Source of the DNA: an uncultured bacterium
GTDB taxonomy: Bacteria; Patescibacteriota; Minisyncoccia; Phycocordibacterales; GWA1-40-21
Length of the DNA stretch: 37,263 bases
Assembly: GCA_903850545.1 (NCBI GenBank)
Contig: CAINLW010000011.1
Span: 1 to 37,263, forward strand
Direction: 5' to 3'
Part shown: one piece after another, positions 15,487-16,046 of the stretch
Numbering within the stretch: position 1 is the stretch's first letter
Layout of the letters: each line of letters starts with the position of its first letter
Position numbers and translations under genes: made by a program
Notes under the pieces: model-generated
What the model saw: only the letters and a program-made list of their open reading frames with translations
Databases searched by the model: none
What the model was told of the DNA's origin: nothing

Positions 15487-15576
15487 AAAATTATTCTATA
15501 CTGGGAAATTATAGCATTTTTTGAAAAAATTGATAAAGATTTCTACAGGCAGGAAGTTCGACCCTTATTGCTTTCT

Positions 15577-15695
15577 TTTGGGTCCCAACCCAAATTCAAG
15601 CACACGAATACTCGGCAGGAACATGAGTACACCACGTACATTTAAAATTTGGGCCCCACCCCTAATTTTAAATACCGGCAGGACCGTGAGTACAC
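15577..15695. repeat. Imperfect tandem repeat carrying CGGCAGGA
   Basis: Two copies (15577-15632 and 15648-15695) share TTTGGG[T/C]CCCA near the left and CGGCAGGA..TGAGTACAC at the right end. A further GGCAGGAAGTTCGACC sits at 15548-15563. GGCAGGA followed by TCGA(A)CC resembles the T-arm/acceptor end of the tRNA-Arg gene read from the + strand. No protein frame is supported in 15487-15785. Confidence 0.5.
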
Positions 15696-15785
15696 TTATC
15701 TCCTTCGACTAAAGCTTCGTCGACACTCAGCTTTGTCTAGGCACCAGCTCACTCATTTCTTTTGCTAAAGAAATATCGTTCCGCT

Positions 15786-15883
15786 GTTCGATTCCTGCCG
15801 GGGGCACAACGCAAAAGAAAATCACTCCATAATAACAGAGTGATTTTCAATTATTTGCGTTGTGCCCCCGGCAGGAATCGAAC
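15786..15883. repeat. Long inverted repeat that includes the tRNA-Arg 3' end
   Basis: The left arm 15786-15815 is the exact reverse complement of 15854-15883 (30 bp); an inner pair 15817-15827/15838-15848 adds 11 bp. The outer 21 bp of the right arm are the 3' end of the tRNA gene, so the left arm is an inverted copy of that end plus its trailer. Confidence 0.85.
15817..15848 (-). terminator. Terminator of tRNA-Arg
   Basis: On the - strand: GAAAATCACTC, 10-nt loop, GAGTGATTTTC, then TTTTG. It lies 14 nt past the tRNA 3' end. Confidence 0.7.
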
Positions 15884-15934
15884 CTACATCAAAGCCTTAG
15901 AAGAGCTCTGTTCTATCCATTGAACTACGAGGGC
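15863..15934 (-). tRNA. tRNA-Arg(TCT)
   Basis: A 72-nt cloverleaf on the - strand. The acceptor GCCCTCG pairs with CGGGGGC, followed by discriminator A; U8-A9 is present. The anticodon stem GAGCT/GGCTT (with G-U pairs) closes the loop CTTCTAA, giving anticodon TCT, which reads AGA/AGG. The T-arm is GTAGG-TTCGATT-CCTGC. CCA is not encoded. Parts of this gene are duplicated on both sides: an inverted 3' end at 15786-15806 and a direct 5' end at 16031-16046. Confidence 0.93.
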
Positions 15935-15982
15935 AGGATAGTATCACTATTAAACTTTTAAAAATGCGTCAATCAATTTAAC

Positions 15983-16046
15983 CTATCCACTCCGACGATT
16001 TTGTCGGAGAGCCGACCATGAGCGTCGGCTTTGAACTACGAGGGCA
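15983..16046 (-). repeat. Second copy of the tRNA-Arg 5' end, split by a hairpin insert
   Basis: 16 nt (16031-16046) are identical to the tRNA 5' end (15920-15935). The next 7 nt of the tRNA, read CTATCCA on the + strand, occur at 15983-15989. Between them are 41 nt forming two hairpins: CTCCGAC/GTCGGAG (15990-15996/16003-16009) and AGCCGAC/GTCGGCT (16010-16016/16024-16030). The match to the tRNA then ends, so this is a fragment and not a functional tRNA. Confidence 0.65.

What the first reader, a model, noticed from the sequence alone, without database searches (positions are those of the whole stretch)
15786..15934. Perfect inverted copy of the tRNA-Arg 3' end flanking its terminator
30 bp (21 of the tRNA plus 9 of the trailer) are repeated exactly as an inverted copy on the far side of the terminator, making a 98-nt hairpin. 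Read-through RNA could pair the copy with the tRNA T-arm and acceptor strand and block folding or processing, which would make termination a condition for a working tRNA. The structure could also come from template switching, from integration at the tRNA 3' end, or from assembly error.
Basis: partly seen in the sequence, partly recalled or inferred. Interest (0 to 1): 0.55.

Follow-up and report, generated by a model that had tools for sequence, protein, structure and literature searches.

The report
tRNA-anchored antisense-guide elements in Paceibacteria
The perfect inverted copy behind this tRNA gene is one arm of a small structured element, one of a large and apparently undescribed family that sits behind many tRNA genes (and sometimes the related tmRNA gene) of small-genomed Paceibacteria, each carrying a short sequence that can base-pair with the very tRNA it follows.

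Summary
In detail: 15786-15815 and 15854-15883 form a perfect 30-nt inverted repeat around the terminator of tRNA-Arg(TCT). It is no isolated accident or assembly error but the antisense arm of a compact element that recurs behind tRNA genes in this lineage. Typical unit: tRNA, terminator hairpin, 9-bp hairpin H1, 12-nt guide antisense to tRNA 54-65 (T-loop plus 3' T-stem), two-hairpin core, often a second copy of the tRNA 3' end. In three congeneric genomes 43 of 111 tRNAs have the guide (29 perfect; swapped control 1.8%/0.1%). The core covaries at 26 of 27 pairs; G.U outnumbers A.C 92 to 10 in the tRNA sense. Its model matches 123 of 297 genomes of the order and 0 of 50 of other phyla. The window copy lacks H1, so guide and acceptor antisense fuse into the long palindrome. 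Best reading (0.45): a non-autonomous mini-element that inserts at the T-arm and regenerates the tRNA 3' end. Enzyme, and whether RNA or single-stranded DNA is the working form, are unknown.

The parts
15862..15934 (-). tRNA-Arg(TCT) gene, host of the element; its positions 53-74 lie in the right arm of the inverted repeat
   Evidence: ARAGORN; Rfam tRNA 66.4 bits, 15863-15934
15854..15883 (-). Right arm: G53, T-loop 54-60, 3' T-stem 61-65, 3' acceptor strand, A73, C74 and 8 nt of trailer
   Evidence: the repeat finder; tRNA numbering by inference from the T-loop GTTCGATTC
15817..15848 (-). Terminator-like hairpin (14 pairs, 4-nt loop, then TTTT) at the apex of the long palindrome
15799..15815 (-). 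Antisense of the trailer, of C74 and A73 and of the 3' acceptor strand (optional part of the unit)
   Evidence: antisense runs 17 nt past position 65
15787..15798 (-). Guide: 12 nt antisense to tRNA 54-65 (T-loop and 3' T-stem), 12 of 12; the 9-bp hairpin H1 usually found just before it is absent here
   Evidence: H1 in other units
15699..15794 (-). Match to model R1 of the core (type M1): hairpin CAGCGGAACGAT..GAGCTG, linker GTGCC, second hairpin; its first 8 positions overlap the guide
   Evidence: R1 114.4 bits, E 1.7e-23; this row is one of the 10 from which R1 was built, so the score is by construction high
15675..15682 (-). A2: partial second copy of the tRNA 3' end (CCTGCCGG = 61-68), could close the core by pairing with the guide; below the 12/14 cut-off used for counting (9/14)
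15546..15620 (-). Probable remnants of further units: two more partial copies of the tRNA 3' end (CCTGCCG at 15613-15619, TTCCTGCC at 15548-15555) beside a GGGTTGGGACCC hairpin and an AAGGGTCGAAC stretch like the end of core type M3
   Evidence: sequence read
15982..16046 (-). Separate 5' feature: fragment of the same tRNA 5' end (16031-16046) with a 41-nt two-hairpin insert (15990-16030) at a D-loop position, upstream of the intact tRNA

Best explanation
The inverted copy belongs to a compact (about 100-250 nt), normally gene-free element that lives directly behind tRNA genes, and sometimes tmRNA genes, of Paceibacteria and some other Patescibacteria. Shown: tRNA - terminator hairpin - (optional antisense of the acceptor) - H1 - guide antisense to tRNA 54-65 - covarying two-hairpin core - second copy of tRNA 60/61-74 in part of the units. 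Inferred: it is a non-autonomous mobile mini-element that inserts at the T-arm, between the T-loop and the 3' T-stem. Its own 5' part supplies an intact tRNA 3' end and terminator, so the tRNA stays functional, while the displaced old 3' end remains as the second copy. The folded tRNA-sense strand, as RNA or single-stranded DNA, is the recognised form: the guide selects the T-arm of the target and can pair with the second copy to close the core. An enzyme supplied in trans, not identified, would do the joining. In the window H1 is missing, so guide, acceptor antisense and trailer antisense are fused into one perfect 30-nt arm.
For: Association: 77 of 87 de-duplicated core hits have a tRNA upstream on the same strand, 64 within 110 nt; 3 of the other 10 follow a tmRNA-like T-arm (one confirmed as tmRNA by Rfam). 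Guide specificity: 43 of 111 tRNAs with at least 11/12 (29 perfect) against 1.8%/0.1% for swapped tRNAs; on the order-wide set 43 of 63, 21 perfect, against 3.0%/0.08%. Fixed ends: antisense goes no further than 54 in 35 of 43 and no further than 65 in 29 of 43. Intact tRNA end plus displaced copy: second copy at least 12/14 in 38 of 63 (control 0.8%) and 16 of 43 (control 0.24%). Structure: 26 of 27 pairs with changes on both sides, 97.4% paired against at most 47.5% when slid; G.U 92, A.C 10. Mobility-like behaviour: at shared tRNAs of three congeners the guide is present in some and absent in others, and core types differ; among 27 hand-labelled family cores, those of one genome on different tRNAs are more alike (0.727) than those of other genomes on other tRNAs (0.662), same-genome against all other pairs reached in 1 of 2000 label permutations; tandem and truncated units; an array with the tRNA-Glu 3' end plus four further copies (one weak, 11/15), two units and a GIY-YIG ORF.
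Against: No enzyme of the three families tested is required: of 48 genomes with at least 4 core hits, 11 have no match to Y1 transposase, RVT_1 or IS110. No precise empty site with homologous flanks was shown. A guide fitted to each tRNA is hard to square with free movement between tRNAs unless it is copied from the target. The second copy falls below 12/14 in 27 of 43 units, the window included. Same-tRNA pairs across genomes (0.734, 11 pairs) are as alike as same-genome pairs, so vertical inheritance also contributes. Pairing of guide with the upstream tRNA shows only a weak RNA-type bias (G.U 21, A.C 11, other mismatches 46). Some core hits have no tRNA directly upstream (L130, L205, L229, L237; weak hits L085, L086).
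Confidence: 0.45

Rival explanations
1. A host RNA: a cis-encoded structured RNA, made by read-through from the tRNA, whose guide binds the T-arm of its tRNA (or tmRNA) and helps or controls maturation, stability or modification; turnover reflects redundancy.
For: Strong structural constraint over a whole order, sense-strand G.U bias, guide tracks the variable T-loop bases, position behind tRNAs and tmRNA, none of three mobilising gene families needed.
Against: No guide of 11/12 behind 68 of 111 tRNAs and differences between congeners at the same tRNA; a terminator-like hairpin precedes the guide in 39 of 43 and no promoter-like match lies between terminator and core in the window; does not explain the second copy of the tRNA end.
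Confidence: 0.25
2. One reading: antisense behind the terminator pairs with unterminated tRNA transcripts, so that only correctly terminated tRNA folds and is processed.
For: Predicted fold of the read-through RNA pairs copy and tRNA; terminator-like hairpins between them in 39 of 43; long fused antisense in 3 of 43, the window included.
Against: Antisense stops at position 65 in 29 of 43, the acceptor part, where present, being set apart by H1; the core and the second copy are unexplained; the second copy can sequester the antisense (folds); terminator-like hairpins are also common behind tRNAs without a unit (48 of 68).
Confidence: 0.1
3. A DNA by-product: fold-back template switching or quasi-palindrome correction at the terminator copied the tRNA end in reverse, and keeps the arms identical.
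For: Arms are perfect through trailer and tRNA in the window; guide mismatches show little RNA-type bias; H1 stems are nearly perfect (895 Watson-Crick, 16 G.T, 8 A.C, 3 others).
Against: Antisense stops at fixed tRNA positions 54 and 65 in the larger part, H1 stands 1-2 nt before the guide in 91 of 103 (where only 0-4 nt were allowed), and a covarying core follows; random switching predicts none of these.
Confidence: 0.1
4. Intron-like element: the guide aligns 54-60 (5' exon) with the second copy 61-65 (3' exon), as an internal guide sequence does in group I introns, and RNA splicing or reverse splicing at 60|61 moves the element.
For: The guide spans the 60|61 junction; the match of the second copy starts at 60 or 61 in 11 of 16 and at 56 or 59 in the other 5; introns (type not tested) occur in two tRNAs of these genomes by ARAGORN (L077, L118).
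Against: The core of about 90 nt matches no ribozyme in Rfam and is smaller than known self-splicing introns (recalled); no tRNA gene was found that depends on splicing, though only a few loci were read for this.
Confidence: 0.08
5. Assembly or binning artefact.
For: The genome is a draft of 64 contigs.
Against: The core model matches 123 of 297 assemblies of the order, with covariation and tRNAs upstream in 77 of 87 hits examined.
Confidence: 0.01

Closest known systems
Genomic islands in tRNA and tmRNA genes (Islander; PMC4383910, abstract and outline seen)
   Same: Target is tRNA and tmRNA genes; a restored target plus a displaced fragment mark the ends.
   Different: Units are about 100-250 nt, normally without a gene, are folded structures with covariation, carry an antisense guide, and sit behind up to 18 of 40 tRNAs of one genome.
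Integron cassette arrays with attC sites (recalled)
   Same: Conserved structure with drifting sequence, strand-specific folding, tandem accretion at one end point.
   Different: Core has two hairpins and the end point is a tRNA; a guide antisense to the target has no counterpart that I recall; an integron integrase was not searched for.
IS110 bridge RNA and IscB/TnpB omega RNAs (recalled)
   Same: Short guide next to a structured scaffold, guide matches the insertion target.
   Different: IS110 occurs in 22 of 297 genomes and shows no association; IscB and TnpB were not searched; both guide parts here are antisense to one strand.
Internal guide sequence of group I introns (recalled)
   Same: One guide can align both sides of a junction, here 60|61.
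   Different: No group I match in Rfam searches of the loci; the tRNA is intact without splicing.
REP/BIME and MITE-type palindromic repeats with Y1 transposases (recalled)
   Same: Non-coding palindromic intergenic elements, genome-specific spread.
   Different: Tied to tRNA ends with a matched guide; Y1 only weakly associated (odds ratio 2.0, p 0.005) and missing in 13 of 48 element-rich genomes.
tRNA primer-binding sites of LTR retroelements (recalled)
   Same: A stretch antisense to a tRNA 3' end.
   Different: The constant part is T-loop and T-stem, not the 3' terminus; acceptor antisense is optional; RVT_1 missing in 21 of 48 element-rich genomes.

Membership tests
Genomic island in a tDNA (Islander definition) | Intact tRNA/tmRNA plus displaced fragment of the same gene | tested here: met
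   In part of the units: second copy at least 12/14 in 38 of 63 (control 0.8%) and 16 of 43 (control 0.24%); the window has only 8 nt of it
Genomic island in a tDNA (Islander definition) | Encodes an integrase | tested here: not met
   In the window the element is about 190 nt in a stretch without an ORF of 80 aa; the other units read are of similar size. Integrases acting in trans were not searched
REP/MITE moved by a Y1 transposase | Y1 transposase in the genome | tested here: not met
   13 of 48 genomes with at least 4 core hits have no PF01797 match; G000 itself has 2
IS110 bridge RNA | IS110 recombinase in the genome | tested here: not met
   PF01548 in 22 of 297; in 4 of 48 element-rich genomes; no match in G000
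Retroelement (RT-dependent) | Reverse transcriptase in the genome | tested here: not met
   PF00078 in 27 of 48 element-rich genomes, odds ratio 1.56, p 0.075; G000 itself has 1
Known Rfam RNA family | Match at the gathering score other than tRNA/tmRNA | tested here: not met
   Window: only tRNA; 14 further loci: 30 tRNA and one tmRNA; 8 loci at E up to 5: besides tRNA only matches below gathering score
Group I intron | Conserved P3-P7 core | tested here: not met
   No group I family among the matches; two-hairpin consensus instead
Integron cassette | IntI-type integrase and attI | not tested
   No search for IntI was made
Transcribed structured RNA | Base-pair covariation and strand-specific G.U | tested here: met
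   strand-specific folding also fits single-stranded DNA
Transcribed structured RNA | A transcript exists | not testable with these tools
   No RNA data at hand

The most novel reading that the evidence does not exclude
A guide-directed insertion system of a new kind: each element carries a 12-nt guide for the T-arm of a tRNA or tmRNA (7 nt of T-loop plus 5 nt of T-stem, spanning the 60|61 junction), uses its folded strand to insert there without breaking the tRNA, and renews its guide by copying the target. It would be either an RNA-level (intron-like) or a single-stranded-DNA-level mobility mechanism with a host-supplied enzyme.
Probability: 0.2. Interest if true: 0.92.

Novelty: categorically new. 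Interest (0 to 1): 0.72.

Why it matters
If right, many Paceibacteria, bacteria with very small genomes, carry a tRNA/tmRNA-anchored structured element, behind 31-45% of the tRNA genes in the three genomes counted, that the Rfam library searched here does not hold. It raises directly testable questions: is the core transcribed, does the guide bind the T-arm in the cell, and what moves or keeps the units? A target-matched guide without its own enzyme would be a new way of choosing an insertion site, and a host role would be a new layer of tRNA control.

Tried and rejected
Assembly error: rejected by recurrence in many assemblies. Chance: rejected. Viral origin: the pattern scan of viral contigs gave 12 loci, none matching the model. 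Dependence on Y1 transposase, RT or IS110: not supported. GIY-YIG endonuclease as mover: an ORF like the two queries is present in only 3 of 77 loci with a core. Rfam: nothing but tRNA/tmRNA at gathering score; low-threshold hits, many to microRNA families, are treated as chance matches of hairpins. Literature: seven full-text searches in the open-access library listed nothing that describes such elements; I saw only listings and the abstract and outline of PMC4383910; subscription papers and preprints are largely not held, so 'undescribed' is limited to that.

Limits of the counts. The core-type calls use loose patterns and contain false positives (for example M1 at G004 Ser-CGA and at Lys-CTT); presence is therefore counted by the guide. 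The M3 alignment was poor in its first hairpin; only its second is used (5 of 5 pairs with double changes). For one search I picked 82 loci; of the family loci I left out four with weak hits (L085, L086, L095, L102) and two overlapping ones (L088, L090); of the loci from named genomes I took those that matched (except three overlapping ones) plus nine others chosen by title, all nine of which matched. This selection favours good matches. Rows dropped: seven duplicates of the 94 matches; the 13 units whose tRNA was further than 110 nt, and one of 64 without a T-loop pattern; tRNAs with under 250 nt downstream or no T-loop pattern; only 27 hand-labelled cores of the 59 family matches were compared. 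In one search I gave the model 80 of 116 genome-contig loci. Of the 10 core hits without a tRNA upstream, three follow a tmRNA-like T-arm, three are cut short (L098, L164, L188, under 140 nt upstream) and four (L130, L205, L229, L237) are unexplained.

Full report
What was checked. The inverted repeat is as described: 30 nt, perfect, 38 nt apart, around the terminator of tRNA-Arg(TCT) on the minus strand. The longest other perfect inverted repeat found by script in the 37-kb window has 20-nt arms. The strand folds with z -11.8.

It is not a single case. In the window's own draft genome (985 kb, 64 contigs) 42 distinct tRNAs were found. Exact antisense of at least 12 nt to the tRNA's own last 31 nt lies 10-300 nt downstream in 16 of 42, against 0.35% when tRNAs are swapped; a direct copy of at least 12 nt occurs in 8 of 42, against 0.5%. 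Reading these downstream regions showed one architecture: tRNA, terminator hairpin, optional antisense of the acceptor strand, a small hairpin (H1), antisense of the T-arm, a conserved core, and a second copy of the tRNA 3' end. Several core types seem to share a two-hairpin layout (called M1, M3, M4, M5 here; my names; only M1 was modelled). The window carries M1.

Exact geometry. In 111 tRNAs of G000, G001 and G004 (same genus; tRNAs with at least 250 nt downstream and a recognised T-loop) a 12-nt stretch antisense to positions 54-65 with at least 11 matches is found in 43 (18 of 40, 14 of 35, 11 of 36), 29 perfect; swapped controls give 1.8% and 0.1%. The antisense extends 0 nt beyond 54 in 35 and 1 nt in 8. 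Beyond 65 it extends 0 nt in 29, 1-3 nt in 11 and 11 nt or more in 3, of which the window's tRNA-Arg is one (17). A second copy with at least 12/14 is present in 16 of the 43 (control 0.24%; 2 of 60 tRNAs whose best guide match is 9/12 or less); its match starts at 60 or 61 in 11 of the 16. H1, a 9-bp hairpin often with loop CTGC (44 of 103), was found within 4 nt of the guide in 103 of 119 distinct units, against 1 of 119 after shuffling. So the window copy is a rarer form without H1, in which guide, acceptor antisense and trailer antisense fuse into the 30-nt arm.

The core is a selected structure. Ten M1 cores gave a consensus with 16 of 27 pairs changed on both sides. The model R1 built from them gave 94 matches in 82 loci that I picked (see Tried and rejected for what was left out). 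On 86 distinct rows 97.4% of cells pair, 26 of 27 pairs have double changes, and sliding the partners drops pairing to 41-48%. This alignment was fitted to the model, which favours the structure; the size of the effect makes this a minor concern. In the tRNA-sense orientation G.U pairs number 92 and A.C mismatches 10, so the tRNA-sense strand is probably the one that folds; the model's own preference for G.U inflates this somewhat. This fits RNA or single-stranded DNA. The guide together with the second copy can close the core into a compact domain (two units folded; z -5.0 and -7.0).

Where it occurs. R1 matches 11 of 12 genomes of the family at E 0.01 (in G002 only one weak match, away from a tRNA), 123 of 297 of the order and 21 of 379 of a phylum-wide sample: 9 in the order, 3 in other orders of the class, 9 in other classes. 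Among 80 of 116 pattern loci of named genomes there were 24 matches in 20 loci: 15 are titled Paceibacterota, Taylor-, Kaiser-, Nomura-, Zambryski- or Parcubacteria and 5 only 'bacterium'. Fifty genomes of other phyla by their titles gave none (the tool notes that an empty answer alone shows little, but the same model and limits matched). Of 87 distinct core hits, 77 have a tRNA upstream on the same strand, 64 within 110 nt. Three of the remaining ten follow a tmRNA-like T-arm, one confirmed as tmRNA by Rfam. Of ten loci from the phylum search that I read, nine follow a tRNA directly, among them five of the six from outside the order. On the order-wide set the guide has at least 11/12 in 43 of 63 (21 perfect; control 3.0% and 0.08%), and the second copy at least 12/14 in 38 of 63 (control 0.8%). 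Some guides replace the middle of the T-loop antisense by GAGAA, which could form tandem G.A pairs (inference).

Mobile or resident. For mobility: at tRNAs shared by three congeners the unit is present in some and missing in others, and core types differ. Among 27 hand-labelled family cores, those within one genome on different tRNAs are more alike (0.727, 47 pairs) than those between genomes on other tRNAs (0.662, 293 pairs); the same-genome excess over all other pairs was reached in 1 of 2000 label permutations. Units occur in tandem (tRNA-Phe and tRNA-Trp) with truncated last units (L177, L310, L312). In L319 the tRNA-Glu 3' end and four further copies of it (one weak, 11/15) bound two units and a module with a GIY-YIG ORF. 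Against: same-tRNA pairs between genomes are as alike (0.734, 11 pairs) and tRNA-Val(TAC) has nearly the same unit and flank in G001 and G004, so units are also inherited. No empty site with homologous flanks was found in the pairs read. No enzyme family tested is required: of 48 genomes with at least 4 hits, 35 have Y1 transposase, 27 RVT_1, 4 IS110, and 11 none of them; the window's own genome has Y1 and RVT_1 matches.

Transcription. A terminator-like hairpin precedes the guide in 39 of 43; the same loose rule finds one within 80 nt behind 48 of 68 tRNAs without a unit. In the window no promoter-like match lies between terminator and core. If the core works as RNA it probably needs read-through.

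Conclusion. Shown by calls: the architecture, its specificity, its structural conservation and its distribution within the samples searched. Inferred: mobility, target choice by the guide, regeneration of the tRNA end. Unknown: enzyme, nucleic acid form, and how the guide comes to match each tRNA. The layout resembles tDNA-targeted islands (restored target and displaced fragment; PMC4383910, abstract) but fails their integrase criterion in the canonical unit, and nothing at gathering score in the Rfam searches or in the listings of the literature searches describes it.

Noticed in passing
window 15982-16046 (minus): A fragment of the tRNA-Arg 5' end with a 41-nt two-hairpin insert (GTCGG-type stems) between CAA and TGG of the D-loop, upstream of the intact tRNA. 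The same kind of insert occurs in tRNA-like sequences of L004 (three places) and L027 (one).
   Followed up: partly
L004 (G000 C30), L027 (G010 C16): A small GIY-YIG-type ORF lies in the same locus as the D-loop-insert tRNA fragments in both, which looks like a second, 5'-end tRNA element with a homing-type gene.
   Followed up: partly
L319 (G008 C7) 711-1940: tRNA-Glu 3' end followed by four further copies (one weak) bounding two structured units and a GIY-YIG ORF, like a cassette array.
   Followed up: partly
L077, L118 (and L101 by reading): tRNA genes with introns of 232 and 211 nt by ARAGORN in the anticodon region, directly upstream of the elements (L077 and L101 sequence). Intron type not tested.
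   Followed up: no
L008 and L017 (G005): Two contigs share the same tRNA-Arg(TCT) and terminator but continue into different H1 and core types (M1, M3), which may be strain variation or two loci.
   Followed up: no
tRNA 3' ends in G000: Many tRNA genes seem to encode N73-C-A rather than N73-CCA after the acceptor; not counted.
   Followed up: no
window 15580-15591 and 15651-15665 (minus): Hairpins of the form GGGTTGGGACCC / GGGGTGGGGCCC beside partial tRNA-end copies; similar hairpins follow some other tRNAs of the genome.
   Followed up: no
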